This document shows positions 22,032-41,586 of a stretch of 64,000 nucleotides of DNA, piece by piece. The notes under the pieces are model-generated. The model ran no database searches, was not told the origin of the DNA, and saw only the letters and a program-made list of their open reading frames with translations. The stretch lies in the NCBI GenBank assembly GCA_937960435.1, contig CALGPN010000009.1:1-64000 (forward strand), read 5' to 3'. How positions within the stretch are numbered: the stretch's first letter is position 1; every line of letters begins with the position of its first letter. The translations under genes were made by a program, and so were the position numbers. Origin of the DNA: an uncultured Desulfosoma sp. (GTDB taxonomy: Bacteria > Desulfobacterota > Syntrophobacteria > Syntrophobacterales > DSM-9756).

Positions 22032-22079
22032 CGTGCTCTCCCGCTAGGTTTCCTTCGCCCATCCTGAAGGTCTTTTGCG

Positions 22080-22142
22080 CCAGAGCCGCCGGCCTCCCTG
22101 CAGGAGCGCTCGGTGTCGGCTCCTGCAGGGAGAGGGCTCTGG
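22080..22142. repeat. Large nested hairpin between genes
   Basis: An inner stem of 14 perfect pairs (CTCCCTGCAGGAGC at 22094-22107 with GCTCCTGCAGGGAG at 22119-22132, 11-nt loop) is enclosed by an outer 8-bp stem (CCAGAGCC 22080-22087 with GGCTCTGG 22135-22142). No T run follows on the minus strand. It may be a processing or mRNA-stability element, or a REP-type repeat. Confidence 0.7.
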
Positions 22143-22152
22143 GTGCCTCAGC

Positions 22153-22491
22153 CTATTTTTTCCGCAGGTCTTGTTTGGACACGTTCATGATGCGCACGGC
22201 GATGCGTTCCGTGCCCTGCGTTTTGAAGGCGATCCTTACCACGTCCCCGGGTTGGGGTTTGATGCCGACGAGGGTTTGCTTTTCAATCTTATAGTCGGCC
22301 GTCACCCCTGTGGGGCGGCCGTAAGGGTGATCCGCACTTTTGTGGGTGTCGAATTCCTCGATGGTCAAGATGTTCGTCGCCGTGTCCATGGAAAGGACTT
22401 TTCCTTGAGCCACGTCGGCGGCGAGCGCCGTCGCGGTCATGAAGAAGGCGGCCGTCAAGGCCAAGAAGAAACCGAGAAGCGAGCGTTTCAT
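22153..22491 (-). CDS. Small secreted (periplasmic) protein, function unknown
   Basis: The 112-residue precursor has a clear signal peptide (MKRSLLGFFLALTAAFFMTATALAA, cleavage after ALA) and a mature part of about 88 residues that looks like a small beta barrel (VAQGKVLSMDTATNILTIEEFDTHKSA ... GDVVRIAFKTQGTERIAVRIMNV). The ATG at 22491 is preceded by GGAGG; the frame upstream is a chance extension. It sits between the TauE permease gene and two small membrane-protein genes. It may bind or present the permease substrate outside the membrane, which is inference. Confidence 0.8.
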   Translation of the reverse strand: MKRSLLGFFLALTAAFFMTATALAADVAQGKVLSMDTATNILTIEEFDTHKSADHPYGRPTGVTADYKIEKQTLVGIKPQPGDVVRIAFKTQGTERIAVRIMNVSKQDLRKK

Positions 22492-22573
22492 AAGGACCTC
22501 CGTTCTGCCTTGTTTGTTTCTTGGGGAATGTGCCCCGGATTGTGCGTTTCCTTTAGCTTTCGGGGAGAACCGA

Positions 22574-22597
22574 CGGCCGCCCTGTTCAGGGCGGCCG
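22574..22597. repeat. Perfect 10-bp stem hairpin after the TauE gene
   Basis: CGGCCGCCCT (22574-22583) pairs with AGGGCGGCCG (22588-22597) across a GTTC loop, 16 bases after the TauE stop on the minus strand. It has no T run. It could partially terminate transcription or protect the upstream part of the transcript, giving different amounts of the permease and the genes after it. Confidence 0.65.
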
Positions 22598-22612
22598 AAA
22601 GGGTCTGCATCA

Positions 22613-23647: not shown

Positions 23648-23668
23648 GGTCATCCTCCTTACCGTGTA

Positions 23669-23971
23669 TTAGTGCTCGACGAGTTTCCGACTCTTGAGAT
23701 CCAAACCCGTGCGGGCCATGATGAAATCCATGAGGAAGCCCAAAAACGCTCCGTACACGGCCGTTAGAACCACGGCCCAGACCGCGAAAAGGAGCGTGTT
23801 CGTGTTATAGAGGTCGGCGATGTATTTGACAAACGCGTTATTGATGACCCGCGTGTCCGCCACGATAATCAGCTGATCGACCTTTTCCCCGCCGCCAGCC
23901 CACACCAGAGACGGCACGGCCGTCACGAGCGCTACGGCTCCTAGGACAATTTTCTTAGCGAAATGCATCAT
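23669..23971 (-). CDS. Small membrane protein with signal peptide, TauE partner
   Basis: The 100-residue protein has a signal-like N-terminus (MMHFAKKIVLGAVALVTAVPSLVWA), a short periplasmic loop (GGGEKVDQLIIVADTRVINNAFVKYIADLYNTN) and one strong membrane helix (TLLFAVWAVVLTAVYGAFLGFLMDFIM), with a basic end. A GGAGGAGG lies before the ATG. It is the first gene of the minus-strand unit, 21 bases ahead of the TauE gene. The second TauE copy at 35274 also has a small membrane protein next to it (36631), although the two are not obviously similar. Function unknown. Confidence 0.8.
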   Translation of the reverse strand: MMHFAKKIVLGAVALVTAVPSLVWAGGGEKVDQLIIVADTRVINNAFVKYIADLYNTNTLLFAVWAVVLTAVYGAFLGFLMDFIMARTGLDLKSRKLVEH

Positions 23972-24304: not shown

Positions 24305-24499
24305 GATGGGCAACGTATCGTTGGGTATGACACAACTTATTGAAATCAAACACATAAAATTTAGGAACACGCATCGGTGTCAGAGACTTTAACACTCACG
24401 GGAGGCGATCTCTGAAAGTTGTCCGACGGCGGCTTTGCGTCTTCGGGAAAAAGCTTATGATTCCAGTATCGTGTCATTCCATTGGGGGTGTGCCGTTCT

Positions 24500-24515
24500 T
24501 GGCATGGAAGGTGCT
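24500..24515 (+). promoter_or_regulatory. Putative sigma-54 promoter of the activator/PpsA-like operon
   Basis: TTGGCATGGAAGGTGCT has GG at 24501-24502 and GC at 24513-24514, with exactly 10 bases between. The -24 half TGGCATG is one base from consensus; the -12 half is GTGC. The predicted start near 24526 would give a leader of about 53 nt before the ATG at 24579. Confidence 0.55.
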
Positions 24516-24578
24516 CGTGAAGAAGGCTGTGGGCGAAACGGGCGGTCCCACAGACCATGGCATGGGGAGAAGCCGTCG

Positions 24579-27197
24579 ATGAGGTTGAAGTGGTTTTATG
24601 AAGAATGGCCGGGTTCCGGGGGCGGCGTGTCCTTCCGGGCTTTGCGTATCCGCACGAAATTGTGGCTCACCTTGGTGCCCACGGTGCTCACCATCTTGAT
24701 CGTCATGGGCTATGTGAGCCACTGGTTTTCCAGCCGGTTTCTCCAGGAGGCCGTCCGGCGCACGGTGCTGCTCCAGACCCTGGCCGTTGCCCACGAATAT
24801 GAAATGTTCATGGATCGGTGCCGAGAAGATTTGTTCTGGGTCTCGCAAGGGGACTTTACAGAAGAACGCTTTCGGGACGTTTGGGCCAAGTTCAAGGCGG
24901 CCCGGGGTTGGGGCTACGCGGAGCTCGGCTTTGTAGAGAACAACGGCGGCAACGGCATGGTGTTGGCCCTATCGGGCGAAGGGGTGCAGAGCGTGGTGTT
25001 CGAACCGGGCACGTCCCTGTGGGACGGTCTCGATAAGCTTTACGGCTGGGCTCAAGGGCCTCCGGAATCCGATCCCGGCCCGTGGCTCGGTCCTGTGGTG
25101 CACGTAGGGTATCGTTCCGCGGACGGAACGGCTTTTTACGGCAAGGCGACCCATGTGGTGCGCTTCATTACCCGGGTAGGCCCCCGCGACGGGGGATCGC
25201 CCGAAGGATTCGTTTTTCTTTCCGTGGACGCCCGTCGCTGGCGGGATATCCTCTCCCTCTACAACTCTCCGCAATCTCCCCTGTTCGGTTTCGTGCGAAG
25301 CCCCGAACTGCGCTATCTCTATTTCATCGACTCCCAGGGATGGATTGTCTTTCAATCGGAAGACAAGGTGAATTCCGAAAAAGCGCTCAACACGGACACG
25401 GCCCGCTTCGGGCTTTCCGGGACGTACGGCAGGCCGGGTCTCCCTTTCGCTTTTCGTCCCAACGTGGATCACGGGGATTTTTGGGACATTGTCGGGGACA
25501 TTCGAGAAATGAAATCCGGAGTCATGGTCCGTTACATTCCCCCGGCCCCTGAAAGTAAGGTGGATCGCGTCTACATCGGATATGCTCCCATTTTCTTTGG
25601 GAGAAGCTCCGACGGGCAGGGGAAAACCCTTTACGGCGCTGTGGTCTTCGTGGACCGCAGTCGGCTGATCACCATGGCGGGTTATCGTCAGGTAGATGTG
25701 GTTTTCATCATCGGGCTCGTCAGCGCGGTTCTTGTGGCCTTTGTGCTCTGGGGGGTCAGCCGCATCATCACCCGCCCTCTGGTGCACTTGGCCGAGGCGG
25801 TGAACGTCATCCAGGAAACGGGCCGTTTGGAACCCATCGACATTCCGGAAAGGGATCTGGATACCGCGTTTCTCAAAGACGCAGTCAATCGCCTCATCGA
25901 GCGCATCCGGGATCAGATGGCGGCTCTGGAGATGCAGGATCGTCAACTTCGGGAAATGATCATGCGGGAGAAAATTTCCCTTGATGAAGAAAGCGATGTC
26001 CTGCGACTGGATCGAGAAAGTCTTCCCGAACCTTTGGCCCGGCTGGTGGGGCAGTCGGCGGGCATGCAGCGATTTCGGGAGCTTGTGGTGCGGGCCGCTG
26101 CGGTGGAGGCGGATGTGCTCATTGTAGGGGAAACGGGGACGGGCAAGCAGCTTGCCGCCGAAGCCATCCACGCGCTAAGCCGTCGGTCGGCGAAGCCTTT
26201 TGTCGCCATCAACTGCGGCGCTCTGGATGAAAACCTCCTTTTGGACGCTTTGTTCGGTCATGTGAAGGGGGCCTTCTCCGAGGCCAAAAGCGACCGCAAA
26301 GGGGCCTTTTTGGCGGCGGACGGCGGCACCCTTTTCTTGGATGAAATCGGCACGGCTTCGCCCAAGGTGCAGCAGGCGTTGCTTCGCGTGCTGGCCGAGC
26401 GGAAAGTGCGCCCTTTGGGAAGCGACGCGGAGCATTCGGTGGATGTGCGCGTCGTGGCGGCGACAAACGTGGATCTGACGGACTTGGTGCGCCGGGGGCT
26501 TTTTCGGGAAGATCTCTATTACCGAATGAATGTGCTCACCCTGCACACGCCGCCGTTGAGGGACCGGCGTGAGGATATCCCGCTCTTGGCGGCCCATTTC
26601 CTGTCGCAGGCCGGCTCGCGGCTGAACCGTCCCAAGGTGTCCTTGACGCAAGGCGCTCTGGAGGCCCTTTTGGCCTACGACTGGCCGGGGAACGTCCGTG
26701 AGTTGGAAAACCGTCTCACTCGGGCCCTCGCCATGACCAAAGGCTCGCGGATTCACGCTTGCGATTTGGGCCTGGATCATGACTTAGGGAACCACGGGGG
26801 TGCGGACGCCGGCGGCGAAGCGGGACCGGTGGAAGGGGTCGGCTGGAGTGCAAGCAACGGGAGCACGGACAGGGGTGGGGAACCTCAGCGCGGGACGGAA
26901 AAGGCCGGGACCCAAAACGGAATGAGCGGCACGAGGCAAACGGCGCCTGTGGAACTCAACGACCGGCAACGAAAGGCGCTCAAGATCCTTCTCCAGCGCG
27001 GCCACATCACGCGGGCCGAGTATCAGGAGGCGGTCGGGGGCGGCGTGGCACCCCGTACGGCCCTCAACGACCTCCAGGACATGGTGGCCAAAGGGGTGCT
27101 CAAGAAAACAGGCCGAGGTCCGGCGACGCGTTATAAGGTCATGAGACGCGAGCACCTCCAGGCTTATCTGACTCACGAACCCGGAGGATCTTCATGA
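24579..27197 (+). CDS. Membrane Cache-HAMP AAA+ regulator of the sigma-54 activator type, GAFSEA loop, winged-helix end
   Basis: The protein has 872 residues. TM1 (about 27-48) and TM2 (about 372-395) flank a large Cache-like sensor, and a HAMP-type linker and coiled coil follow to about 480. The AAA+ domain (about 490-730) has GETGTGKQ, FLDEIGTASP and FREDLYYRMNVL. The sigma-54-contacting loop reads GAFSEA (564-569) instead of GAFTGA. The Fis helix-turn-helix is missing; a low-complexity linker leads to a winged-helix domain (LNDRQRKALKILLQRGHITRAEYQEAVGGGVAPRTALNDLQDMVAKGVLKK). The ATG at 24579 follows GGGGAGA. It overlaps the next gene by ATGA. It may use a different partner from sigma-54. 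Confidence 0.9.
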   Translation: MRLKWFYEEWPGSGGGVSFRALRIRTKLWLTLVPTVLTILIVMGYVSHWFSSRFLQEAVRRTVLLQTLAVAHEYEMFMDRCREDLFWVSQGDFTEERFRDVWAKFKAARGWGYAELGFVENNGGNGMVLALSGEGVQSVVFEPGTSLWDGLDKLYGWAQGPPESDPGPWLGPVVHVGYRSADGTAFYGKATHVVRFITRVGPRDGGSPEGFVFLSVDARRWRDILSLYNSPQSPLFGFVRSPELRYLYFIDSQGWIVFQSEDKVNSEKALNTDTARFGLSGTYGRPGLPFAFRPNVDHGDFWDIVGDIREMKSGVMVRYIPPAPESKVDRVYIGYAPIFFGRSSDGQGKTLYGAVVFVDRSRLITMAGYRQVDVVFIIGLVSAVLVAFVLWGVSRIITRPLVHLAEAVNVIQETGRLEPIDIPERDLDTAFLKDAVNRLIERIRDQMAALEMQDRQLREMIMREKISLDEESDVLRLDRESLPEPLARLVGQSAGMQRFRELVVRAAAVEADVLIVGETGTGKQLAAEAIHALSRRSAKPFVAINCGALDENLLLDALFGHVKGAFSEAKSDRKGAFLAADGGTLFLDEIGTASPKVQQALLRVLAERKVRPLGSDAEHSVDVRVVAATNVDLTDLVRRGLFREDLYYRMNVLTLHTPPLRDRREDIPLLAAHFLSQAGSRLNRPKVSLTQGALEALLAYDWPGNVRELENRLTRALAMTKGSRIHACDLGLDHDLGNHGGADAGGEAGPVEGVGWSASNGSTDRGGEPQRGTEKAGTQNGMSGTRQTAPVELNDRQRKALKILLQRGHITRAEYQEAVGGGVAPRTALNDLQDMVAKGVLKKTGRGPATRYKVMRREHLQAYLTHEPGGSS

Positions 27198-29951: not shown

Positions 29952-30353
29952 CTAGGCGCGGAGAACCTTTTCCCGAGCTTTTTTCTTTTCCAAAGCCCCC
30001 TCGATTTTGACCACCAAATCGTCGATGGGGCAAGGTTTCAAAAGGTATTCGTATCCGCCGAGGCGCATGATCTCCACAGCGGCGTCCACATTGGCGTGCC
30101 CTGTGAGGATGATGACCTCCGGCAAAGGGTCCAGCGTTTTGATCTTCGCCAGGGCCTGGATGCCGTCCATGCCCGGCATTTTCACATCGAGAACGATCAC
30201 GTCCACATCGCCTTGCTGCACACGCACCAGGGCCTCATGGGCGGATCCCGCCTCCTCGACGGCGAAACCTCTTTTCCGCAAGAGCTTTCCCATGGTGGTC
30301 CGAAAGCGCTCTTCATCATCTACGAGAAGAATCCGTGCTGTGGGGGATGCCAT
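29952..30353 (-). CDS. Single-domain response regulator
   Basis: The 133-residue receiver has LVDDEE, phospho-acceptor Asp56 (VIVLDVKMPGMDG), ILTGHAN and YLLKPCP. There is no output domain. GGAGGAG lies ahead of the ATG. It follows the sensorless kinase at 30363 by 9 bases in the same direction, so the two form a kinase-receiver pair. It converges on the PpsA-like gene with 136 bases between; that gap shows no terminator. Confidence 0.93.
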   Translation of the reverse strand: MASPTARILLVDDEERFRTTMGKLLRKRGFAVEEAGSAHEALVRVQQGDVDVIVLDVKMPGMDGIQALAKIKTLDPLPEVIILTGHANVDAAVEIMRLGGYEYLLKPCPIDDLVVKIEGALEKKKAREKVLRA

Positions 30354-31639: not shown

Positions 31640-31655
31640 TGGCATGTTCCTTGCC
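31640..31655 (+). promoter_or_regulatory. Putative sigma-54 promoter of the REC/kinase/TauE unit
   Basis: CTGGCATGTTCCTTGCC has GG at 31641-31642 and GC at 31653-31654 with 10 bases between. It matches YTGGCAYG-N4-TTGC throughout and is the best sigma-54 match in the window. The predicted start is near 31666, 70 bases before the first gene at 31736. Confidence 0.75.
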
Positions 31656-31735: not shown

Positions 31736-32185
31736 ATGGACCGACCTTTCCGAATCCTCGTGACCGATCGCAATCGTCACGTACGGGCCTTCTTGAGGAG
31801 AGAACTGGCCCGGGAGGGCTACGAGGTCTTGGAAGCCAAGGACTGTCGAGAGCTTCGGAAAATTCTGCGGTCACCGCTGGCGGTGGATTTGCTGGTGTTC
31901 GATCCGGATATTGCTTTTGAAAACCACCGGAACATGATCCAGACTTTGAGGGAGCGGTATCCTTCGTTGCTGGTGGTGCTGCATAGCTTTTGGGAAGAGC
32001 CCGCCGAGTGCCCCGAGGTGCAGGCGATGGTGCCCAAGACGGGCTCACCCAAAGAGCTTAAAACGGTGGTGGCTCGGCTTCTTGCGGAAGGCGCCTCATG
32101 GGAGGCTTCCGGGCGGCTCTCTGTGAACGATTCGTGGAACGGTCCCCCGACACCGGGAAGGAATTCGGATGATCACGGCGGATGA
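31736..32185 (+). CDS. Divergent receiver-domain protein
   Basis: The 149-residue protein begins FRILVTDRNRHVRAFLRRELAREGYEVLEAKDCREL, a receiver-like start. Asp56 (LLVFDPDIAF) fits the phospho-acceptor position, and MVPKTGSPKEL supplies a Lys near the expected place. The acidic pocket is weak (TDRN instead of DDE) and the region after Asp56 is unlike other receivers here, so activity is uncertain. The C-terminal 30 residues look disordered. It overlaps the Cache kinase by 17 bases and is the first gene behind the sigma-54 promoter at 31640. Confidence 0.75.
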   Translation: MDRPFRILVTDRNRHVRAFLRRELAREGYEVLEAKDCRELRKILRSPLAVDLLVFDPDIAFENHRNMIQTLRERYPSLLVVLHSFWEEPAECPEVQAMVPKTGSPKELKTVVARLLAEGASWEASGRLSVNDSWNGPPTPGRNSDDHGG

Positions 32186-33977
32186 GAGATATTACGCCAG
32201 CTTGCGTCGCAACATCATGGCCATCATCATCACGGTGGCCCTGATGCCGCTGCTCGCGATGATGGCCATTGCCGGGTACCAGTTTCACACAGCCTATCGC
32301 CATAAAGTTGTCGATCACCTGGCCGCTCTGGTGGACCGCCACACGATGCATGTGGACACGTTTCTTTCGGAAAAGCTGGCGGACATCAGCACTCTGGCGG
32401 TCATCAAGCCTTTGGAAAAGCTCCGGGACTCCGCTGAATTGGAAAAGATTCTCACCATGTTTCAAGAAAAGCACCGCGGCGTCTTCGTGGACCTGGGGCT
32501 TGTAGACGAGCAGGGTTTTCAAGTGGCCTACGCCGGTCCGTTTCGCCTGACGCGGGCGCAATACGGGGACGCGTCGTGGTTTCAGGAATCCATCCGGCAG
32601 CCTTTTACCGTCAGTGACGTGTTCCTCGGGCTTCGAGGGCTTCCGCATTTTATCGTGGCCGTGCGCATCGAATCCGGCGGGCATTTCTGGGTTTTGCGTT
32701 CCACCATCGATTTTGTGGCGTTCAATCGCCTTGTGGAGGATCTGCGCATCGGGAAGACGGGGCAGGCTTTCATCGTCAATGCGGAAGGACAGTTTCAAAC
32801 GCAGCCGCACGCCAGACCCGGCGTGGATCCCCAGGAACTTCTGCGCATCGTTCGCGGTGAGGCACCAAAGGAGATTTATTCCACGGCGGTGGAAGGCCTG
32901 GAAATCATGGGGGGATCGGGCAACGTGTATAAAACGCCCACAGGCCTCCATGGGGCCTCGTGGTTCGAGTATACGGTCCCCGAGACCCAGCGTCGGTTCC
33001 TCGTATTTTACCAAAACCTGAAAGGGGGGCGTTGGGTCCTTTTTTACCTCCAGGAATTGGAGGATGCCTTCCACGACCTTTACAAGGCCCGCATGCTGAC
33101 TTTGGTTGTCTTGGCCTTCAGTACCTTGGGCGTGACGTTAACGGCCTGGGCCCTGTCCCGGCGGGTGGTCCTGCGGATCATCCAAGTGGATCGTGAAAAG
33201 GAAATGATGAACGAACAGGTCGTCGAGGCGGGCAAGCTGGCTTCCATCGGGGAATTGGCCGCCGGAATCGCCCACGAAATCAACAATCCTGTGGCCATCA
33301 TGGTGGAAGAGGCCGGATGGATTCAAGATTTGTTGGAAGATTGTGAACGGGGCGAACGCTTGGACGTGGAGGAAGTTCGCCGATCCCTACAGCAAATTCG
33401 CACCCAGGGGGCGCGGTGCAAGGAAATCACGCACAAGCTGTTGAGTTTTGCTCGTCGCACGGACCCCACGGTGCAACAGGTGCAGCTGAACAAGCTCGTC
33501 CAGGAAGTGGTGGCTCTGGTGGAACAGAGGGCGCGATACGCCGGGGTGACGATCCGAACGCATCTGACGGAAGGCCTCCCCTGGGTGGCCATGTCCCCCT
33601 CGGAAATGCAGCAAGTGCTCTTGAACCTCATCAACAACGCTTTAGACGCCATGGAAAAGAGCGGCGGGACGCTGGATATCACTACGCGCTACGAGGACGG
33701 GCGGGTCATTGTGGATGTGGCGGATACGGGTGAAGGCATTCCCCAGGCCATTCTCCAACGCATCTTCGACCCCTTTTTCACCACGAAACCCGTCGGCAAA
33801 GGAACCGGTCTCGGCCTCTCCATCTGTTATGGCATCATTCGGAAGCTCGGCGGCGACATTTCCGTCAACAGCGCCGTCGGCGTGGGAACCACTTTTCACA
33901 TTTATTTGCCTGCCGGTGACGGGGTTGTGCAAACCAAAACCGTGGAGAGAGACACACTCACCAAGGAGGAGTCGTGA
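32169..33977 (+). CDS. Cache-sensor membrane histidine kinase (copy B)
   Basis: The 602-residue kinase has TM1 (about 16-38), a periplasmic double-Cache domain (about 40-300) and TM2 (about 308-330). A HisKA domain follows with His369 ([17 protein letters not shown]), then a HATPase with [21 protein letters not shown] and [11 protein letters not shown]. It is a paralogue of the kinase at 16890 in both sensor and catalytic parts, with a longer Cache region. It is flanked by one divergent receiver upstream and three receivers downstream, all tightly packed, so it may phosphorylate several targets. Its stop shares one base with the next ATG. Confidence 0.94.
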
Positions 33978-34411
33978 TGGATCGGACGTATGTGATGCTC
34001 GTGGACGACGAAGTGCCCTTCGTGGACACCATGACCCGGCGCTTGGGCAAGCGGGGATTCGAGATTCTTCAGGCCTACAGCGGCCCGGAAGCTTTGGAGG
34101 CGTTGTCGAAAAACCCCAAAGTGGACGTGGTGGTGCTGGACGTGAAGATGCCCGGCATGGACGGCATCGAGGCCTTGAGGGAGATCAAGAAGGCGTACCC
34201 CCTCGTGGAAGTCATCATGCTCACGGGCCATGCCACCGTGGAAACGGCCATCGAAGGGATGCGCCTCGGCGCTTTCGATTACCTCATGAAGCCGTGCGAC
34301 ATCGACGAGCTGGTTTCCAAGGTTCGGGAGGCCAAAGAAAAGAAGGCCCGCCATGAAGAAAAGATCGTGGAAGCCAAGGCCAAATCCATCGCTTTGCGCC
34401 GAGGCGATTGA
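33977..34411 (+). CDS. Single-domain response regulator
   Basis: The 144-residue receiver has MLVDDEVPF, phospho-acceptor Asp55 (VVVLDVKMPGMDG), MLTGHAT and YLMKPCD. A 25-residue charged tail (AKEKKARHEEKIVEAKAKSIALRRGD) is predicted helical. The ATG at 33977 is preferred over the GTG at 33974 because AGGAGG (33964-33969) is then 7 nt away. It overlaps the kinase stop by one base and is its most likely partner. Confidence 0.93.
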   Translation: MDRTYVMLVDDEVPFVDTMTRRLGKRGFEILQAYSGPEALEALSKNPKVDVVVLDVKMPGMDGIEALREIKKAYPLVEVIMLTGHATVETAIEGMRLGAFDYLMKPCDIDELVSKVREAKEKKARHEEKIVEAKAKSIALRRGD

Positions 34412-34426
34412 GGAGACGAAGACGCC

Positions 34427-34822
34427 ATGACCGCTCCGCATGAGCCCACAGCGCGCCAATTGCGCGTCCTTTTGGTGGACGACGAAAGGGGCTTTACCGA
34501 TGTTTTGGCCCGCCGTCTGGGGCGCCGATGCATGCTCGTCACCACGGCTGCCAGTGGCACCGAAGGCATTCAAAAACTTCGGGACAATCGGTTCGACGTG
34601 GCGGTCTTGGACCTGAAGATGGAAGACATGGACGGCATCGAAGTTCTCAAGATCTTCAAGAAGATTGACCCTCACATGCCGGTGATCATGCTGACCGGCC
34701 ATGGTTCGGAACAGGCGGCGCGAGAGGGGCTGGCTTACGGGGCTTTCGATTACCTGACAAAGCCCTGTGAGCTGGAGGACCTCGTGGCCAAGATCTGTCG
34801 GGCCGTGGAAACGACGAGGTGA
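34427..34822 (+). CDS. Single-domain response regulator
   Basis: The 131-residue receiver has LLVDDERGF, phospho-acceptor Asp62 (VAVLDLKMEDMDG), MLTGHGS and YLTKPCE. The loop after the phospho-Asp reads KMEDMDG in place of the MPGMDG of the neighbours, which may change partner choice. GAGGAGA precedes the ATG. It is the middle one of three consecutive receivers. Confidence 0.92.
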   Translation: MTAPHEPTARQLRVLLVDDERGFTDVLARRLGRRCMLVTTAASGTEGIQKLRDNRFDVAVLDLKMEDMDGIEVLKIFKKIDPHMPVIMLTGHGSEQAAREGLAYGAFDYLTKPCELEDLVAKICRAVETTR

Positions 34823-34826
34823 GTCC

Positions 34827-35261
34827 GTGGAAACGATCCGAGTTTTACTCGTCGACGATGAAGTGGAATTTCTCGACACCCTCCTCAAGCGCATGCGCAA
34901 GCGGCAGGTGGAGGCCGCCGGAGTGTACAGCGCCGAAGATGCCCTGCGCTACCTGGAGTCCTCGCCCGTGGACGTGGTGGTCTTGGACGTGAAGATGCCG
35001 GGCATGGACGGGATCGATGCCTTGAAGGCCATCAAAGAGCGGCATCCCTTAGTGGAAGTAATCATGCTCACCGGCCATGCCAACGTGGAAGTGGCCATTC
35101 AAGGCATGGAACTGGGCGCCTTCGATTACCTCATGAAGCCCATGGACATCGATGAGCTCCTCTACAAGGTCCAGGATGCCTGCAAGAAAAAAAGACTGCA
35201 CGAAAAAAGAATCCAGAAGAGAAAGGGGGTGGAAGCAGAGGAGGAAAACGGCACCGCGTGA
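34827..35261 (+). CDS. Single-domain response regulator
   Basis: The 144-residue receiver has LLVDDEVEF, phospho-acceptor Asp54 (VVVLDVKMPGMDG), MLTGHAN and YLMKPMD, with a basic tail (KKKRLHEKRIQKRKGVEAEEENGTA). The GTG at 34827 is the start that gives a normal receiver N-terminus; the frame upstream only shadows the previous gene. It lies 4 bases after the preceding stop and 12 bases before the TauE permease gene, linking the receivers to transport. Confidence 0.92.
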   Translation: METIRVLLVDDEVEFLDTLLKRMRKRQVEAAGVYSAEDALRYLESSPVDVVVLDVKMPGMDGIDALKAIKERHPLVEVIMLTGHANVEVAIQGMELGAFDYLMKPMDIDELLYKVQDACKKKRLHEKRIQKRKGVEAEEENGTA

Positions 35262-35273
35262 GGCCGGAGCACA

Positions 35274-36626
35274 ATGGGATCGGCAATGGGAGAGTTTTTT
35301 GGAGACCCGAAAGTAGAGGTTGAAACCATGAAGAGCATGCGAAAAGTGTACGAGCTCCTTCTCAGTGCATCGAAAGCGCACGCCCGTTGGGATTACGAGA
35401 CGTCCATGAACATCGTGCGCAGCCGAAAGCGTTTGGTCATTCTTGGTCTTTTGGCGCTTCCGGCGCTGCTGTTCGCCGTGGCCTTTGCGGCGGATCCCAC
35501 CGGCGGGGGACTGCCGGGGATGTTGGGCGGCAAGGAAGCCTATACGCCGGCTTTTTACGACACTTGGATCTTCTTGATTTCCATCCTCATCGGTTTGTGT
35601 GCCGGTCTGATCACGGGGTGTATCGGCGCAGGCGGCGGGTTTATCATCACCCCTGCCTTGATGAGTGCCGGCATCAAGGGGATTTTGGCGGTTGGCACCG
35701 ACCTGTTTCACATTTTCGCCAAAGCCATCATGGGGACCACAGTTCATAAAAAGCTGGGCAACGTGTCCGTTCCTTTGGCTATCTGGTTCCTGGTGGGGTC
35801 CGGAGTCGGGGTTACTGCCGGCGGGGTCATTAACCGGACGCTGTATGAAATTAACCCCCTGCTGAGCGACACATTCATCAGCGTGGTCTACGTCGTGTTG
35901 TTGGGGTTCTTGGGTATCTATGCTTTGACGGACTTTTTCCGGTTGCGCAAAGCCGGCGTGGATGTGGGTGCCCATCACGGCGAAAGCCCTCACGGCGCCG
36001 AAGCGGCTTCGGGAAAGGTTGGCCTTCCGGCCCGGTTGCAGGCCATGAGCATTCCGCCTTACATCCGCTTCGATGAGGACCTGGTTCCCGGCGGCAAAAA
36101 GATCCCCGCCATTTTCGTCATTATCTCCGGGGCCTTGGTAGGTTTTGTGGCGGCCATCATGGGAGTGGGCGGCGGTTTCCTCACGTTCCCCATCTTTGTC
36201 TATGTCCTCGGCGTCTCCTCGTTCACTACGGTGGGAACGGACATCTTGCAAATCATTTTCACAGGTGCCTATGCGGCCATCTTCCAATACGCCATCTATG
36301 GGTTCATATTCTACACCCTGGCCATGGGCATGCTTCTGGGGTCCCTTCTCGGCGTCCAGTTGGGGGCTCTAACGACAAAGGTCATCAAGGGCATCTATAT
36401 TCGCGGTTTTTACGCCACGGCCATCATGGCCGGTTTCGTCAACCGTTTGTTCGCCCTGCCCAAGAAATTGGCGGACATGAAGTACATCACCCTGGCTCCC
36501 GAAACAGGCAAGGCGCTCACTACGGTGGGCAATTGGGCGTTTTTCGTCGTGGTGACCATTTTTGCCCTATGGGTGATCGGGACCTTTGTGGCACGCATTG
36601 GAGCCCTTCGTGGAGAGGAGGCATAA
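35274..36626 (+). CDS. TauE/SafE family permease, copy B (long form)
   Basis: The permease has 450 residues, about 100 longer than copy A. A cytoplasmic N-terminal stretch (MRKVYELLLSASKAHARWDYETSMNIVRSRKR) precedes the first membrane helix. The family signatures are GLITGCIGAGGGFIITPALMSAGIKGILAVGTDLFHI and GFVAAIMGVGGGFLTFPIFVYVLGVSSFTTVGTDILQI. A cytoplasmic loop of about 70 residues separates the halves. It should export or import a small organic or sulfur anion. The start may be 35274 or the ATG at 35329 (MKSMRK). It is in one run with three receivers upstream and a membrane protein downstream. Confidence 0.92.
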   Translation: MGSAMGEFFGDPKVEVETMKSMRKVYELLLSASKAHARWDYETSMNIVRSRKRLVILGLLALPALLFAVAFAADPTGGGLPGMLGGKEAYTPAFYDTWIFLISILIGLCAGLITGCIGAGGGFIITPALMSAGIKGILAVGTDLFHIFAKAIMGTTVHKKLGNVSVPLAIWFLVGSGVGVTAGGVINRTLYEINPLLSDTFISVVYVVLLGFLGIYALTDFFRLRKAGVDVGAHHGESPHGAEAASGKVGLPARLQAMSIPPYIRFDEDLVPGGKKIPAIFVIISGALVGFVAAIMGVGGGFLTFPIFVYVLGVSSFTTVGTDILQIIFTGAYAAIFQYAIYGFIFYTLAMGMLLGSLLGVQLGALTTKVIKGIYIRGFYATAIMAGFVNRLFALPKKLADMKYITLAPETGKALTTVGNWAFFVVVTIFALWVIGTFVARIGALRGEEA

Positions 36627-36630
36627 GACC

Positions 36631-37335
36631 ATGATTCGAAACAAGAAAACTTTCGGTTTGGGGCTCGTTTTGACCGTTTCTTTCTTCGTTGTGTTATGGA
36701 TCATGTTTTTGCCCTATTTTGGCGGCGAAAACGCCTTTCACGCCGCAGACCGTCTCTTCAACACCATTTCCAAGGGGTCGTCCTATTACATTCCGGACTT
36801 GATGGAAAAAGCCAAGGAATGGGACGGGAAGACTTTTGAGATCAAGATTTCCGTCGGTCCCGACAAACTTCGGGACAATGTGGCCAAGATCCTGATGACC
36901 AATGGCGCGATGGTCGCCCAAGAAGGCCAGGCCTTGAAAGTGCAGGGCGATTTGGGATCCTTGTTCAAAGCGGCGTTGAAAGACAGCGACATCATGTACC
37001 ACAACCGTGGAGAAGAGATCCGCAGCCGATACGGGATTCCGGAAAAGGAAGCTCTCTTCGCCTGGTGGAATGCGCTGAAAGCCACGGACAAGGCTTTTAA
37101 AGAGCAAAAAAAATTTACAGAATCCAAGGCCGTCGCTGAGGTGATCGCCCGCGCCGTCGAGGTCGGCTACAATTATTACGGCATCGCGCCGGAAAAGGCG
37201 GCCGCTCGTGCAGGCATCCTGGCCTTCGCCCTGGTTTTCTATGTGGTCTATACCATGTGGTGGGGCTTCGCCATCATGTATCTGTGTGATGGGCTCGGCC
37301 TGGAAATGAAAAAAGGCGCGAAGAAGGAAGTTTAG
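36631..37335 (+). CDS. Membrane protein with large soluble domain, TauE partner, function unknown
   Basis: The 234-residue protein has a membrane helix at about 8-28 (FGLGLVLTVSFFVVLWIMFLPYF) and another at about 195-222 (AGILAFALVFYVVYTMWWGFAIMYL). Between them, about 160 residues face outward or inward (DRLFNTISKGSSYYIPDLMEKAKEWDGKTFEIKISVGPDKLRDNVAKILMTNGAMV). GAGGAGG precedes the ATG at 36631; the frame upstream shadows the permease gene. It follows the permease by 4 bases and is probably its accessory subunit. I do not recognise the family. Confidence 0.82.
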   Translation: MIRNKKTFGLGLVLTVSFFVVLWIMFLPYFGGENAFHAADRLFNTISKGSSYYIPDLMEKAKEWDGKTFEIKISVGPDKLRDNVAKILMTNGAMVAQEGQALKVQGDLGSLFKAALKDSDIMYHNRGEEIRSRYGIPEKEALFAWWNALKATDKAFKEQKKFTESKAVAEVIARAVEVGYNYYGIAPEKAAARAGILAFALVFYVVYTMWWGFAIMYLCDGLGLEMKKGAKKEV

Positions 37336-37606
37336 AGTTTTGTTCGATGTGGAGGAGGCCTGCCGTAGGTCGAACGTTCCCCCCGAACCGGCGCATCCCC
37401 ACGGCAGGCTGTTTCCTCGACCATCCCGACAAAAACACCGTCGGGATGGGATACTGCAGCCTTTTGTCGGTGCAAGCATCCCGTCGGCTTTAGGGGTTTG
37501 CCCATCGGCTTTAGGGGCTTGTAAGTTTCCTTGCTGGCGGCGTTTCTTGGAAATGACGGGCGCGCTGAAGGGGACACGGTGAGCGGGACACGTGGGGGAG
37601 GATCCG
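37336..37606. repeat. Intergenic region with hairpin and direct repeat
   Basis: These 271 bases hold a perfect 10-bp hairpin, CCATCCCGAC (37421-37430) with GTCGGGATGG (37440-37449), and a 13-bp direct repeat TCGGCTTTAGGGG at 37484 and 37505, 21 bp apart. No promoter was recognised for the PpsA-like gene. The features look like dispersed intergenic repeats. Confidence 0.6.
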
Positions 37607-40264
37607 GTGGCGAGCGGTTTGCGAAGAGGCCTGGAAAAATGGGCGAAAAACGTGTCCGGGTGGTTCGGACTCTCCCTGTCCAAAGAACCGGTCCCTGAGG
37701 AGAGTCTGGAAGATCTACGGCTTGCTTTTCAAAATCGGTATCATCACTTTAAACTCCTCTTGAATGCCAACAACCGCGCCTTGGAGGTCATGACCGAAAT
37801 GGAAGAGATGCTCCAAGGGACGCGCCCGTTCGGCATGACCTTCGTTCGATCCCGATGCACCCAAGTTTCCACCGCCGTTTTTCAGATCATCCAACACCTG
37901 AATGCCTTGGCCCCGGGGAAGTATACGGAGCTCTACGAGCGGTTCCGTGCCATTCAAAAACAGATCAACCCCTATATTTCCATTCCCCATGGGTCGGTTT
38001 CCGGACCATTGGTTTTGCCCATGGATCAGGTGGACAAGGAATCGGGCGATTTGGTGGGATCCAAGATGGCCAACCTGGGGGAAGTGAGGCGGCACCTCGG
38101 GGTGGCGACGCCCGAAGGGTTTGCGGTCACGGTGTGCGGTGTCGCCCGGTTCTTTGAAGAAAACGACCTGCAGGTGGAAATTGATCGGCGGGTCCAGGCG
38201 GTGCCTTCGGATCGTTTGGACGATCTTTTTGCTTTAAGCGCCCAGATTCAGCAATTGATCATTGCCGCGCCGGTCCCGGAAGACCTTCGCGAAGCCGTCC
38301 AGGGGCAGGTCCAGGCCCTAAAGGAAAGGCTCGGCGGGCGGCTGCGATTCGCCGTCAGAAGCAGTTCTTTGGCGGAAGATCTCCCGGGCATGTCCTTCGC
38401 CGGCCAGTTCCGTTCCGAACTCAATGTGGGGGAAGAAAACATCCTGCAGGCTTTTAAGGAAGTGGTCGCCAGCAAGTACGGGGTCGCCGCCATGACTTAT
38501 CGCCTGCGCCACGGCCTTCGGGACGAGGATGTGGCCATGTGTGTGGGGTGTCTCGTCATGGTGGACGCCGTGGCGAGCGGCGTGCTCTACACGCGAAACC
38601 CGTTGAATATCCGGGACGATGTGCTGGTGATCAACGCGGTCTGGGGGCTTCCCAAGTCGGTTGTGGACGGCAGTGTGAGCCCCGACGTGTGGGTCGTCTC
38701 CCGCAAGGAACCGCACACCGCGTTGGAGCGCCGAATCGGTGAGAAGTCCGTCAAATATGTGTGCTACCCGGACGAAGGAGTGTGTCGGTTGGAAACAGCC
38801 GGCGACGAAAGGCGTCACGCGTCTTTGACGGATGCGCAGGTGGCGGATCTGGCCAGGCTGGCGCTTCAGATCGAGGCCCATTACGGAGGGGCCCAGGACA
38901 TCGAATGGGCCCTGGACGGTTCAGGGCGTTTGGTGATCCTGCAGACGCGCCCTTTCGAAGGGCGTTCCGCGGCGGATCGTCCCGTTCATGTGGCGGGAGA
39001 CGACCGCGGAGTTCCGGAAGGGGTAGAGGTGCTCGCCGAGGGGGGCGTGACGGCTTCTTCCGGTGTGGCTTCCGGGCCTGTTTATGTGGTGCGCCGTGAC
39101 GCCGACGCCTTGCAATTTCCCGAAGGGGCCGTCTTGGTGGTGGCTCAGGCGCTTCCTCGCTGGGCGCCGCTTCTTGGGCGCGCCGCCGCCGTGGTCAGCG
39201 AACAGGGAAGCGTGGCCGGCCATCTGGCCAATGTGGCCCGGGAATTCCGCGTCCCCGCGCTTTTCGGCCTCTCCGGCGTCATGGAACGCCTTCAACCGGG
39301 TCGGACGGTCACCGTCGATGCCGACCAGGGGCGCGTTTACGACGGTCTGGTGGAGATCCGGGTGGAGCGGCCCGAGGAACGCCAGGCCCTCATGAAAGGC
39401 ACTCCCGTCTACGAGGCTTTGGAAGGGGTGAGTCGACTCATCCTGCCTTTGCATCTGTTGGATCCCGAATCGCCGGATTTTTCGCCGAAAAAATGTCGGT
39501 CCTTCCACGACATCACCCGGTTCTGTCATGAAAAAGCCGTCGATGAAATGTTCCGATTCGGCTCGGAACACCGCTTTCCCCAAAAATCGGCCAAGCAGCT
39601 CAAATGCCGCGTGCCCATGCAGTTCTGGATCATCAACTTGGATGACGGCTTTGCGGAAGAGATCGCGGGCCCCTATGTGACGCTGGACCAAATCACCTCC
39701 GTTCCCATGCTGGCTCTGTGGCAGGGGATGACGGCCATCCCATGGGAAGGCCCGCCCCCCATCGACAGCAAGGGGTTCATGTCCATTCTCCTGGAAGCCA
39801 CGTCCAATCCGGGTTTGGACCCTTCCGTGGCCTCCCCCTACGGCGTGCGCAACTATTTTATGATTTCACGGAATTTTTGCAGTTTGCAGTCCCGATTCGG
39901 CTTTCATTTCTCCACGCTGGAAGCCCTCGTGGATGAAAGGACCTCGCAAAACTATATAAGTTTTCAGTTCAAGGGTGGGGCGGCCGACCGGACGCGCCGG
40001 ATTCTTCGAGCGCGTTTTGTGGCGGAGCTTTTGGAGTCTTTCGATTTTCGCTGTGAGGTCAGAGAGGACGCGGCTTTCGCCCGCCTGGAGGGGCGATCCC
40101 AGGACGTTATGGTGGATCGGCTGCGCATTTTGGGTTATCTCATCATCCATACGCGCCAGCTGGACATGGTCATGGGCAATGCGGGATCGGTGCAACACTA
40201 CCGGAGCAAGATGCTCCAAGAGATTGAAACGGTGCGACGGGCCGAAGGCGTCTCTTGTCCTTAG
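37607..40264 (+). CDS. PEP-synthase-like ATP-grasp/phosphohistidine protein without PEP barrel (copy B)
   Basis: The protein has 885 residues and is a paralogue of the protein at 27194. The N-terminal helical domain contains FQNRYHHFKLLLNAN and FGMTFVRSRC. The ATP-grasp domain (about 125-465) has GSKMANLGEV, AVRSSSLAEDLPGMSFAGQF and EWALDGSGRLVILQTRP. The swivelling domain carries His539 (GSVAGHLANVAREFRVP). The C-terminal 285 residues match copy A (FHDITRF-HE, FGFHFS, NYISFQFKGGAAD, HTRQLDMVM) and are not a TIM barrel. GTG 37607 follows GGGGGAGG by 5 nt; an in-frame GTG at 37592 is the alternative. The GAF kinase follows directly. Confidence 0.9.
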   Translation: MASGLRRGLEKWAKNVSGWFGLSLSKEPVPEESLEDLRLAFQNRYHHFKLLLNANNRALEVMTEMEEMLQGTRPFGMTFVRSRCTQVSTAVFQIIQHLNALAPGKYTELYERFRAIQKQINPYISIPHGSVSGPLVLPMDQVDKESGDLVGSKMANLGEVRRHLGVATPEGFAVTVCGVARFFEENDLQVEIDRRVQAVPSDRLDDLFALSAQIQQLIIAAPVPEDLREAVQGQVQALKERLGGRLRFAVRSSSLAEDLPGMSFAGQFRSELNVGEENILQAFKEVVASKYGVAAMTYRLRHGLRDEDVAMCVGCLVMVDAVASGVLYTRNPLNIRDDVLVINAVWGLPKSVVDGSVSPDVWVVSRKEPHTALERRIGEKSVKYVCYPDEGVCRLETAGDERRHASLTDAQVADLARLALQIEAHYGGAQDIEWALDGSGRLVILQTRPFEGRSAADRPVHVAGDDRGVPEGVEVLAEGGVTASSGVASGPVYVVRRDADALQFPEGAVLVVAQALPRWAPLLGRAAAVVSEQGSVAGHLANVAREFRVPALFGLSGVMERLQPGRTVTVDADQGRVYDGLVEIRVERPEERQALMKGTPVYEALEGVSRLILPLHLLDPESPDFSPKKCRSFHDITRFCHEKAVDEMFRFGSEHRFPQKSAKQLKCRVPMQFWIINLDDGFAEEIAGPYVTLDQITSVPMLALWQGMTAIPWEGPPPIDSKGFMSILLEATSNPGLDPSVASPYGVRNYFMISRNFCSLQSRFGFHFSTLEALVDERTSQNYISFQFKGGAADRTRRILRARFVAELLESFDFRCEVREDAAFARLEGRSQDVMVDRLRILGYLIIHTRQLDMVMGNAGSVQHYRSKMLQEIETVRRAEGVSCP

Positions 40265-40293
40265 GCGAGAGGCAAAAGCCGGGAGATGTCTCA

Positions 40294-41586
40294 ATGGTTC
40301 CCATCTCGTTTCAGAGCGATTTGACGACGGTGTCTTTCAGCCGTCGGAAACTCATGCGCCGCAACCGGGCTTTGTCGGTGCTTTTGGGGTTGAGCGAACT
40401 GCTTTCCCAATCCAAGGGGCTTAGGGATCTGCTTACTCAAGCGTTGGACTATGTTTTGGAACACACGGCTTTTGATGCCGGCCGAATTTATCTCATGGAA
40501 CCCGACCGGCAGGCCCTAAAACTGGCCGCGTATCGGGGCATGGACGTGGAAGGTCTGGAACGGGTGAGTCTGGATGAAGGCTTTACGGGGCGGGCCGCCA
40601 AATCTTGTTCTTTCATCGCCCAATCGGTCCAGTCTCTGGGTGACGTTAAGCGAGCGGAGCTCTTGGCATCCAAGGGGATTCACACGGTGGTTTGTGTCCC
40701 GTTCGTCGTTTTGGATCGCGTGGAAGGGGTGATGAACCTGGCGTCCAAAAACCCCATTCGATTGGACCAAGATGAGGTGGATTTGCTTATGATGATCGGG
40801 CACCTCATCGGCGTCGCGGCCATCCACGCGGAAACCGAGGAAATCCTCAGGGAAACCGTGGAAGAAATCCAGCGAAGAAAGGAAAACATCAAACTCTTCG
40901 TGTCCACCATCGGCCACGACCTCAAAGGACCGGCCGTCGCCGCCTTTGGATTCGCCAAAAGGCTCTCTGAGCTTTACCGCGGCGTCCTGGACGAGCGCGG
41001 TGTCACCTATCTGGAACAGATTTTCAAGGCCACAAGGCAAATCGCGTGCATGGTGGATGAACTCAACCACTTCGTCCGGACGCGGGAAATGCCCCTTAAA
41101 GCCCAACGCCTGGCGGTCTCCTCGCTGTGGGAAAGCCTGCGGCAGGAATTTTCCGCGGAGCTGGAAAAAAGGGCCATTGGATGGGCCGAAAACGCTCGGG
41201 TGTCGGAGGTTATCGCCGACGAGGTGATGGTGTTGCGAGCCTTGAGAAATCTCATCCAAAACGCCCTCGTCCACGGCGGGTCCTCGATGCGGACCGTGCA
41301 AGTGGGGTGCGAGGAAAGGGAAAATTTCTTCGTTTTTTGGGTTGCCGACGACGGGCGGGGAATTCCTCTGGAGGAGCAAGGAAAGTTGTTTGAACCTTTC
41401 GCGCGCCTTAAGACCTCCAAGGTCGTCGACGGCTCGGGCCTGGGGCTCGCGATTGTGCGCGAAGTGGCGCGTCGTCATGGTGGGGAAGCCTGGCTGCGCT
41501 CTGAACCGGGCAAAGGGGCCGTCTTCTTTTTCAGCGTGGCCAAACCGACGCCGACCGAATGCGGGCGCGTGCCTGAAGGAGAGTGA
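40294..41586 (+). CDS. GAF-domain histidine kinase
   Basis: The 430-residue soluble kinase has a GAF domain at about 40-185 (ALDYVLEHTAFDAGRIYLMEPDRQALKLAAYRGMD ... VCVPFVVLDRVEGVMNLAS). A coiled coil leads to HisKA with His208 (STIGHDLKGPAVAA), then HATPase with NLIQNALVHG, DDGRGIPLEE and GSGLGLAIVREV. ATG 40294 follows GGGAG by 8 nt; a TTG at 40255 would overlap the PpsA-like gene. It lies 29 bases after that gene and just before a UspA gene, so it probably belongs to the same unit. No receiver follows it, so it may use the orphan receivers nearby. Confidence 0.92.
   Translation: MVPISFQSDLTTVSFSRRKLMRRNRALSVLLGLSELLSQSKGLRDLLTQALDYVLEHTAFDAGRIYLMEPDRQALKLAAYRGMDVEGLERVSLDEGFTGRAAKSCSFIAQSVQSLGDVKRAELLASKGIHTVVCVPFVVLDRVEGVMNLASKNPIRLDQDEVDLLMMIGHLIGVAAIHAETEEILRETVEEIQRRKENIKLFVSTIGHDLKGPAVAAFGFAKRLSELYRGVLDERGVTYLEQIFKATRQIACMVDELNHFVRTREMPLKAQRLAVSSLWESLRQEFSAELEKRAIGWAENARVSEVIADEVMVLRALRNLIQNALVHGGSSMRTVQVGCEERENFFVFWVADDGRGIPLEEQGKLFEPFARLKTSKVVDGSGLGLAIVREVARRHGGEAWLRSEPGKGAVFFFSVAKPTPTECGRVPEGE

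What the first reader, a model, noticed from the sequence alone, without database searches (positions are those of the whole stretch)
31736..35261. One kinase with four receiver proteins, none with an output domain
Receivers at 31736, 33977, 34427 and 34827 surround a single kinase. They differ at the loop after the phospho-Asp (MPGMDG, MEDMDG, or unlike any), which suggests a branched network with phosphate sinks or several protein targets, possibly the permease or PpsA-like proteins.
Basis: partly seen in the sequence, partly recalled or inferred. Interest (0 to 1): 0.5.

Follow-up and report, generated by a model that had tools for sequence, protein, structure and literature searches.

The report
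Conserved four-receiver, transporter-linked signalling operon
In a sulfate-reducing bacterium one sensor kinase sits in a gene run with four different receiver proteins that carry no output part, and the same order recurs in distant relatives beside an anion permease and a PEP-synthase-like enzyme, which suggests that the signal may control these proteins directly rather than genes.

Summary
Three ordinary stand-alone receivers (R2 33977, R3 34427, R4 34827) follow a dCache kinase (32169). A fourth, divergent receiver (R1, 31736) precedes it: below Pfam's cut-off, but a receiver fold by prediction. It is not a one-kinase system: a GAF kinase ends the gene run (40255) and another kinase/receiver pair diverges upstream.

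The array is ancient. In a tree of 233 receivers R1, R3 and R4 form pure clades and R2 a nearly pure one, each holding the window's copy. Kinase-R2-R3-R4 recurs in 18 other loci, the full order up to TauE-X366-PpsA-like in ten. A sigma-54 element (at most one mismatch) precedes R1 in 19 of 25 loci; in the other six R1 follows TauE-X366.

R3 tracks the kinase; R4 tracks the PpsA-like gene and usually lies directly before TauE. A sister Desulfovibrio 'nitrate cluster' (TauE, kinase, one receiver, PpsA-like) is published: insertions in TauE, receiver and PpsA-like genes give the same nitrate resistance.

Best reading: a branched, non-transcriptional system acting on TauE/X366/PpsA-like. Phosphate sinks lack specific support. 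Phosphotransfer and binding were not tested. New variant of a known kind; interest about 0.5.

The parts
31640..31654 (+). sigma-54 (-24/-12) element TGGCATGTTCCTTGC, ending 81 nt before the R1 start
   Evidence: only exact match to TGGCAYRN4TTGC in the window (the stricter form ending in W has none; matches with up to 1 mismatch are not above chance, 5 against 4.35). Same element within 350 bp upstream of R1 in relatives: 14 of 25 exact, 19 of 25 with at most 1 mismatch, against 0.98% and 2.8% of random 350-bp pieces
31736..32185 (+). R1: divergent stand-alone receiver (149 aa)
   Evidence: Pfam Response_reg 25.7 bits, below cut-off; R1 clade 27 of 27, support 100; phospho-Asp in 24 of 27, second acidic residue Arg in 24 of 27; AF2 model is a receiver fold without a predicted helix 4
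32169..33977 (+). HK321: dCache-HisKA-HATPase_c kinase (602 aa)
   Evidence: phospho-His motif H[ED][ILV][NS]N[PA] in 42 of 42 HK321-class sequences of at least 430 bits, L033 and five repeats left out
33977..34411 (+). R2: canonical stand-alone receiver (144 aa)
   Evidence: Pfam 107.3 bits; clade of 42, 40 of them R2, support 82; phospho-Asp in 38 of 42
34427..34822 (+). R3: stand-alone receiver with DLKMEDMDG loop (131 aa)
   Evidence: Pfam 102.9 bits; pure clade of 37, support 98; DD, D, T and K kept in 37 of 37; Glu at D+4 in 35 of 37
34827..35261 (+). R4: stand-alone receiver (144 aa), directly before TauE
   Evidence: Pfam 104.1 bits; pure clade of 48, support 95; DD, D, T and K kept in 48 of 48; counted directly before TauE in 35 of 43 X366 loci that have R4
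35274..36626 (+). TauE/SafE (TSUP) permease (450 aa)
   Evidence: Pfam TauE 120.8 bits
36631..37335 (+). X366: conserved protein (234 aa) paired with TauE
   Evidence: no Pfam or NCBIfam match; alignment of 11; 369 relatives in genome contigs, best 80 kept
37592..40264 (+). PPSA2: PEP-synthase-like protein, helical N-terminus + PPDK_N + phospho-His mobile domain + C-terminus without a Pfam match
   Evidence: mobile-domain His544 in 45 of 45 aligned sequences, one of them the window's PPSA1; AF2 model; closest folds PEP synthase and rifampin phosphotransferase
40255..41586 (+). GAF-HisKA-HATPase_c kinase at the end of the gene run
   Evidence: HATPase_c 86.5 bits; HisKA 25.4, just under its cut-off of 26.9; follows PPSA2 in L031-L035, L041, L043, L046, L049, L050
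30363..31388 (-). HK303: divergent HisKA kinase
29952..30353 (-). RR299: receiver beside HK303, of another clade

Best explanation
The four receivers are parts of one conserved, sigma-54-driven gene run, R1-HK321-R2-R3-R4-TauE-X366-PPSA2(-GAF kinase). HK321 senses a ligand through its dCache domain and phosphorylates R2 and/or R3; phosphate or binding state then reaches R4. The receivers act by binding proteins, not DNA. R4 sits on the effector side and acts on the TauE/X366/PPSA2 trio, so that a signal adjusts traffic of an anion (sulfite-, thiosulfate- or nitrate-like; not known) together with the PEP-synthase-like phosphotransferase. R3 is the kinase-side receiver. R1 is a divergent receiver that probably works mainly by binding, perhaps as an adaptor or brake. 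Shown: genes, order, receiver families, phospho-site conservation, promoter element, co-occurrence. Inferred: all phosphotransfer, all partners, substrate and direction of control.
For: Order HK-R2-R3-R4 in 18 loci and the full order in 10, beyond the window (L032 and L033 are near-duplicates). Receiver clades. In 55 TauE-X366 loci with enough flank: R3 with HK321 in 22 of 23 (the exception, L090, has HK321 split in two ORFs), and HK321 in 0 of 32 loci without R3; R4 with PPSA2 in 29 of 32 (two of the three exceptions, L038 and L039, have PPSA2 after R4 but outside the counting limit) against 5 of 23. R4 counted directly before TauE in 35 of 43. Loci without HK321 keep receivers beside TauE/X366/PPSA2: R1-R2-R4 in L095 and L116, R1-R4 in L111, L124, L125, R1 in L079. 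Hybrid kinase in L128 carries an R2-class receiver (172 against 138 bits for R4), followed by R4-TauE-X366-PPSA2. Sigma-54 element, at most 1 mismatch, upstream of R1 in 19 of 25; in the other six R1 follows TauE-X366, and five of these have an exact element before TauE. Sister cluster: isolated insertions in TauE, hypothetical, receiver and PPDK genes grew alike with or without nitrate in D. vulgaris (PMC4001038); loci L163/L164 have that cluster's domain order with a receiver and a PPSA homologue.
Against: No binding or phosphotransfer was tested. No receiver is fused to PPSA, TauE or X366 in the 121 loci scanned, repeats included. In loci fetched by the kinase R3 is present in only 16 of 24 and none of R1-R4 nearby in 5 of 24, so the R3-HK321 link is not strict outside the TauE-X366 loci. 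R4 without HK321 (11 of 32) is partly soft: L082 has a kinase just under my threshold (423 bits), and L094, L100, L128 and L167 have another kinase near R4. Five of 34 PPSA2 loci lack R4. The nitrate cluster's PPSA matches PPSA2 at only 31-35% and its TauE matches the window's second TauE with 22-23 bits and the operon's TauE not at all at E 1e-4. The published insertions may be polar, and in D. vulgaris the kinase is annotated as a pseudogene whose isolated mutant showed little or no resistance. Counts over related genomes are not independent.
Confidence: 0.5

Rival explanations
1. Phosphate-sink network: HK321 phosphorylates all three canonical receivers, one is the working output and the others drain phosphate to set a threshold, with their targets elsewhere in the cell.
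For: One kinase beside three canonical receivers in order; sinks are a known use of extra receivers (PMC4214558, search listing only; PMC5964349, abstract and passages).
Against: D+2 and T+2 residues are almost identical in R2, R3 and R4. R4 and R1 persist without HK321 (11 of 32 and 7 of 20 loci, with the softness told above). R4 tracks PPSA2 and TauE.
Confidence: 0.17
2. The receivers act on transcription indirectly, by modulating the sigma-54 activator or the upstream kinase-NtrC pair that drives the operon, so the array is a feedback loop on its own expression.
For: Recurring sigma-54 element; a kinase-NtrC pair stands directly upstream of R1 in L079, L080, L085, L088, L089 and L090; in the window an activator without a receiver lies at 24435-27197.
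Against: Upstream activators differ between lineages (NtrC with receiver, receiver-less NtrCx, none seen) while receiver-TauE-X366-PPSA2 stays together.
Confidence: 0.15
3. R1 is chiefly an inhibitor of HK321 that binds its transmitter domain without phosphorylation, like Osp on CckA, and R2-R4 form an ordinary output set.
For: R1 lacks one acidic residue, has lost the phospho-Asp in 3 of 27 and has its best-conserved stretch in helix 1 (N13, R17, R22 invariant); R1 and HK321 overlap by 17 nt; Osp precedent (PMC9430884, abstract and outline).
Against: R1 occurs without HK321 in 7 of 20 loci (one, L090, has it split), for example R1-TauE-X366-PPSA2 in L079.
Confidence: 0.15
4. The receivers are largely redundant paralogues kept by chance after duplication.
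For: All are receivers of one broad family; several lineages have lost one or more.
Against: Pure or nearly pure clades in fixed order, class-specific residues, dN/dS 0.06-0.17 against L031 and 0.16-0.24 against L032 (dS is 0.8-2.0 for these genes, so rough).
Confidence: 0.05

Closest known systems
Desulfovibrio 'nitrate cluster' DVU0251-DVU0245 / Dde_0597-0605 (PMC4001038: abstract, sections 16 and 17, passages)
   Same: TauE permease, kinase, stand-alone receiver and PPDK_N/PEP-utilizer protein in one gene run; loci of the same domain order recovered here (L163, L164).
   Different: One receiver instead of four; has a phosphonate-binding periplasmic protein, a PAS kinase, a phosphatase and DUF169; a TauE with little sequence likeness; PPSA only 31-35% identical.
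D. vulgaris DVU0539/DVU0946 regulons with PSE/TSUP transporters (PMC3333781: section 9 and passages; PMC4641369 and PMC10102598: passages)
   Same: Sigma-54 promoters, two-component control and transporters of putative anion-export families.
   Different: Control there is by DNA-binding NtrC-type regulators; no receiver array is described in the passages I read.
Stand-alone receiver networks: MrrA hub (PMC5964349: abstract and passages) and Osp inhibitor of CckA (PMC9430884: abstract and outline)
   Same: Output-less receivers that pass phosphate between kinases, or inhibit a kinase.
   Different: There the described end output is a transcription or stress-response regulator; here receivers share a gene run with a permease and a phosphotransferase-like enzyme.
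PEP synthase / rifampin phosphotransferase (PDB 2ols, 5hv1, 5hv2)
   Same: ATP-grasp plus phospho-His mobile domain.
   Different: Below the NCBIfam cut-offs for PEP synthase; helical N-terminus and its own C-terminus.

Membership tests
Response_reg receiver family (PF00072) | score over the curated cut-off (30.2 bits), R2-R4 | tested here: met
   R2 107.3, R3 102.9, R4 104.1 bits
Response_reg receiver family (PF00072) | score over the curated cut-off (30.2 bits), R1 | tested here: not met
   25.7 bits
Response_reg receiver family (PF00072) | conserved acidic pair, phospho-Asp, Thr/Ser and Lys | tested here: met
   R3 37 of 37, R4 48 of 48; R2 phospho-Asp 38 of 42; R1 only partly: phospho-Asp 24 of 27, second acidic residue replaced by Arg in 24 of 27
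Response_reg receiver family (PF00072) | receiver fold for R1 | tested here: met
   AF2 pLDDT 84.0; best VIA Z 18.8, rmsd 1.6, 124 aligned to 3crn_A; helix 4 not predicted
Desulfovibrio nitrate cluster | TauE + kinase + stand-alone receiver + PPDK_N/PEP-utilizer protein in one run | tested here: met
   compare L163/L164
Desulfovibrio nitrate cluster | phosphonate-binding periplasmic protein and dual-specificity phosphatase in the run | tested here: not met
   no such Pfam match among the nine proteins from R1 to 41586
Desulfovibrio nitrate cluster | loss gives nitrate resistance | not testable with these tools
   needs mutants
Phosphate-sink two-component system | one kinase phosphorylates several receivers, one draining the other | not testable with these tools
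   needs phosphotransfer assays
Phosphate-sink two-component system | different D+2/T+2 residues as a proxy for dephosphorylation rate (recalled rule, not a defining feature) | tested here: inconclusive
   no difference seen: D+2 K in 38 of 42 (R2), 36 of 37 (R3), K or R in 48 of 48 (R4); T+2 H in 38, 37 and 48; a sink could still exist
Sigma-54-dependent operon | -24/-12 element upstream, recurring in relatives | tested here: met
   use of the promoter was not tested
PEP synthase (TIGR01418 / NF005057) | score over the curated cut-off | tested here: not met
   PPSA2 333.1 and 346.8 bits against 739.75 and 598
Osp-like kinase inhibitor (for R1) | binds the kinase transmitter domain and blocks autophosphorylation | not testable with these tools
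   R1 occurs without HK321 in 7 of 20 loci, so it is unlikely to be its only role

The most novel reading that the evidence does not exclude
A two-component system whose output is an enzyme-transporter complex: receivers of separate ancient families, one of them a binding-only pseudo-receiver, dock on a PEP-synthase-like phospho-histidine protein (perhaps its conserved helical N-terminus) and through it switch a TauE-type anion permease, so that membrane flux is tied directly to an external signal and to cell energy state without any gene regulation.
Probability: 0.25. Interest if true: 0.78.

Novelty: new variant of a known kind. Interest (0 to 1): 0.5.

Why it matters
Output-less receivers often have unknown partners. 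Here receiver families are tied by order and co-occurrence to three concrete candidate partners (permease, X366, phosphotransferase-like enzyme), and a simpler one-receiver version exists in genetically tractable Desulfovibrio with a measured phenotype. If true it would show how sulfate reducers control anion traffic post-translationally, and give a role to a family of PEP-synthase-like proteins that has up to 11 matches per genome in the family of G060 (pieces of one gene may count twice).

Tried and rejected
HPt idea for the PPSA2 N-terminus (RYHxFK resembling HxLK, recalled): the His is kept in only 32 of 45, so rejected. Receiver fusions to PPSA, TauE or X366: none found in 121 loci. Link to dissimilatory sulfate reduction through dsrA: over the cut-off in 46 of 59 genomes, the window's own included, so not informative. 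First promoter count (16 of 26) used stop-to-stop starts and is superseded. The PPSA2 C-terminus was not folded alone, so no statement about its fold is made. HK-receiver covariation was not attempted: too few pairs. Paper searches for a described receiver array with TauE/PEP synthase; no listed title or abstract start describes one, but most listed papers were not opened.

Rows dropped: five loci that repeat others (L066, L067, L068, L072, L081) before the tree and the counts; also L033 (near-duplicate of L032), but not, 243 receivers were found, 16 were dropped (over 90 aa after the match, or under 95 aa) and 6 window rows added, giving 233; loci without at least 5 kb upstream and 4.5 kb downstream of X366 in the co-occurrence test (55 of 88 kept). 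Each clade is the branch that best fits the label (F-score), so purity is a best case. The split of promoter loci into R1-first and TauE-first was made after seeing the result. In one search the gene order uses stop-to-stop starts; this makes L034 look as if R3 were nearer TauE than R4, which the trimmed starts do not bear out.
Full report
What is there. The window is contig C9 of a 3.0-Mb genome (61 contigs, 95% complete) with dsrA over its cut-off. From 31736 to 41586 on the plus strand the genes are: R1 (divergent receiver), HK321 (dCache-HisKA-HATPase_c), R2, R3, R4 (receivers), TauE, X366 (no Pfam or NCBIfam match), PPSA2 (PPDK_N + PEP-utilizer mobile domain) and a GAF kinase. R1/HK321 overlap by 17 nt and HK321/R2 by 1 nt (ATG at 33977); the gaps are 15 nt (R2/R3), 4 nt (R3/R4), 12 nt (R4/TauE) and 4 nt (TauE/X366); 256 nt precede PPSA2. 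Upstream on the minus strand are HK303 and its neighbour receiver RR299.

Is R1 a receiver? It scores 25.7 bits against a cut-off of 30.2. Its AF2 model (pLDDT 84.0, 26 sequences) has the receiver order of strands and helices but no helix 4; Foldseek and VIA place it with receivers (best VIA Z 18.8, rmsd 1.6, 124 aligned). Across the 27 clade members the phospho-Asp is kept in 24, the second acidic residue is Arg in 24, Thr/Ser is kept in 22 and Lys in 23; the three without the Asp are L088, L089 and L090. The best-conserved stretch is helix 1, roughly (D/E)RNxHVRxFLxRE, with N13, R17 and R22 invariant in 26.

Conservation. A search of 59 genomes, the window's own included, with HK321 (58 have a match at E 1e-40, most of them paralogues) and one genome-contig scan with the X366 alignment (369 relatives, best 80 kept) gave loci whose record titles name mostly Desulfobacterota-type and Nitrospirae organisms, with a few others. 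After dropping five repeats, a FastTree tree of 233 receivers has R1 as 27 of 27 (support 100), R3 as a pure clade of 37 of the 43 labelled R3 (98), R4 as a pure clade of 48 of 64 (95), and R2 as a clade of 42 with 40 of the 49 labelled R2 (82); each holds the window's copy. Labels outside the clades are best-hit labels of more distant receivers. HK-R2-R3-R4 is colinear in 18 loci and R1-HK-R2-R3-R4-TauE-X366-PPSA2 in 10. Same-genus genome G001 has no X366 match and no HK321 match better than E 1.2e-49, so the module looks dispensable.

Promoter. TGGCATGTTCCTTGC at 31640-31654 is the only exact match to TGGCAYRN4TTGC in the window; the stricter form ending in W has no match, and the count with one mismatch, 5 against 4.35 expected, is not above chance. 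In relatives the element lies within 350 bp of the R1 start in 14 of 25 (exact) and 19 of 25 (at most one mismatch), against 0.98% and 2.8% of random pieces from the same loci. The six without are loci where R1 follows TauE-X366; five of these have an exact element before TauE, and the sixth (L121) is cut by the contig start. Of all 38 TauE-first loci 9 have an exact element.

Who goes with whom. In 55 TauE-X366 loci with enough flank: R3 with HK321 22 of 23 (L090, the exception, has HK321 split), and HK321 in 0 of 32 loci without R3; R2 with HK321 17 of 20 (5 of 35 without R2); R4 with PPSA2 29 of 32 (of L038, L039 and L122 only L122 lacks PPSA2; the other two fall outside the counting limit), and PPSA2 in 5 of 23 without R4 (L077, L079, L090, L120, L145); R4 without HK321 11 of 32; R1 without HK321 7 of 20. 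Of the 11, L082 has a kinase of 423 bits, under my threshold of 430, and L094, L100, L128 and L167 have another kinase near R4. R4 was counted directly before TauE in 35 of 43. In loci fetched by the kinase the picture is looser: R3 16 of 24, R2 13 of 24, R4 10 of 24, none of R1-R4 nearby in 5. L046 and L050 hold HK-R3-PPSA2; L095 and L116 hold R1-R2-R4-TauE-X366-PPSA2 with no match to the window's kinases in the 7 kb upstream or between; L111, L124 and L125 hold TauE-X366-R1-R4-PPSA2 behind a kinase-NtrC pair. In L128 (Anaeromyxobacter sp.) a kinase is fused to a receiver that scores best as R2 (172.3 bits; R4 137.6), followed by R4. These counts are from related genomes and are not independent, so the Fisher p-values overstate significance.

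How the receivers differ. R3 has Glu for the usual Pro at D+4 (35 of 37) and a hydrophobic helix-3 face (V67, I70, F71, M74); R4 has Glu97 (88%) and Tyr115 (88%) toward helices 4 and 5; R2 has Lys97 (79%) (R2 numbering; helix places by homology). D+2 and T+2 are alike in R2-R4. This fits different protein partners better than sinks, but it is inference. dN/dS against L031 is 0.167 (R1), 0.064 (R2), 0.083 (R3) and 0.073 (R4), and against L032 0.236, 0.177, 0.160 and 0.202 (dS 0.8-2.0, so rough).

The effector side. PPSA2 keeps the mobile-domain His in 45 of 45, scores far below the PEP synthase cut-offs, and its AF2 model (pLDDT 82.7, pTM 0.70) has a helical N-terminus (36-129) before the ATP-grasp part; closest folds are PEP synthase and rifampin phosphotransferase, with low TM over the whole chain (at most 0.42 of the query in the rows shown).

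Published sister system. Korte et al. 2014 (PMC4001038; abstract, sections 16 and 17 and passages read) describe a poorly annotated 'nitrate cluster': DUF169, TauE, hypothetical, PtxB, kinase, single receiver, PPDK-like, phosphatase. Isolated D. vulgaris insertions in TauE, the hypothetical, the receiver and PPDK grew alike with or without 100 mM nitrate; the phosphatase insertion did not help. The authors suggest a leaky thiosulfate transporter. Caveats: polarity (mine), pooled and isolated results disagree for DVU0250, and the kinase is annotated as a pseudogene in D. vulgaris, its isolated mutant giving little or no advantage. L163 and L164 carry that domain order (Pfam run on L163's genes, DUF169 on L164's), and their PPSA proteins match PPSA2 over both halves at 31-35%. 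This makes TauE, receiver and PPSA-like protein likely parts of one pathway in a related system; it does not show binding. Other Desulfovibrio two-component/TSUP or PSE links: PMC3333781 (section 9 and passages), PMC4641369 and PMC10102598 (passages).

Verdict. A real, conserved, branched receiver array; most likely a non-transcriptional controller of the TauE/X366/PPSA2 trio. Phosphate sinks remain possible but unsupported. I found no description of the array in the searches listed.

Noticed in passing
window 16225-23971: A second transporter/two-component block: cNMP-binding protein, kinase with a dCache match just under cut-off, stand-alone receiver (18606-19004), then on the minus strand a PHO4-type transporter, PhoU_div, CBS protein, an unmatched 338-aa protein, a second TauE (22613-23653) and a 100-aa protein.
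   Followed up: partly
window 24435-27197: Sigma-54 activator without a receiver, with an N-terminal part that has no Pfam match; it reads GAFSEA where GAFTGA is usual, the variant listed for DVU0151 in PMC4641369.
   Followed up: no
window 37421-37521: Between X366 and PPSA2: a perfect 10-bp inverted repeat and two 21-nt direct repeats, 90% alike.
   Followed up: no
L128 6523-8046: Natural fusion of an HK321-like kinase with an R2-class receiver, followed by R4-TauE-X366-PPSA2, in an Anaeromyxobacter MAG.
   Followed up: partly
L122: HK-R2-R3-R4-TauE-X366 in a record titled Candidatus Magnetomicrobium cryptolimnococcus, so the array may reach beyond the Desulfobacterota if the bin is right.
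   Followed up: no
L111 10709-11158, L125 9668-10153, L121 1651-2106: A universal-stress-like ORF (recognised by eye from ILVPLDGS / LLVPVDGS) lies between X366 and R1.
   Followed up: no
L090 6070-7778: HK321 is split into two overlapping ORFs of 416 and 196 codons: frameshift or assembly error.
   Followed up: no
genomes G160, G172: PPSA-like proteins look strongly expanded: 11 matches each at E <= 1e-25; 89 of 119 genomes of that family have at least one.
   Followed up: no
window 42259-47426: After the gene run: an acyl-CoA-synthetase-like protein with an acetyltransferase domain, a universal stress protein with two matched stretches and a DHH-CBS protein.
   Followed up: no
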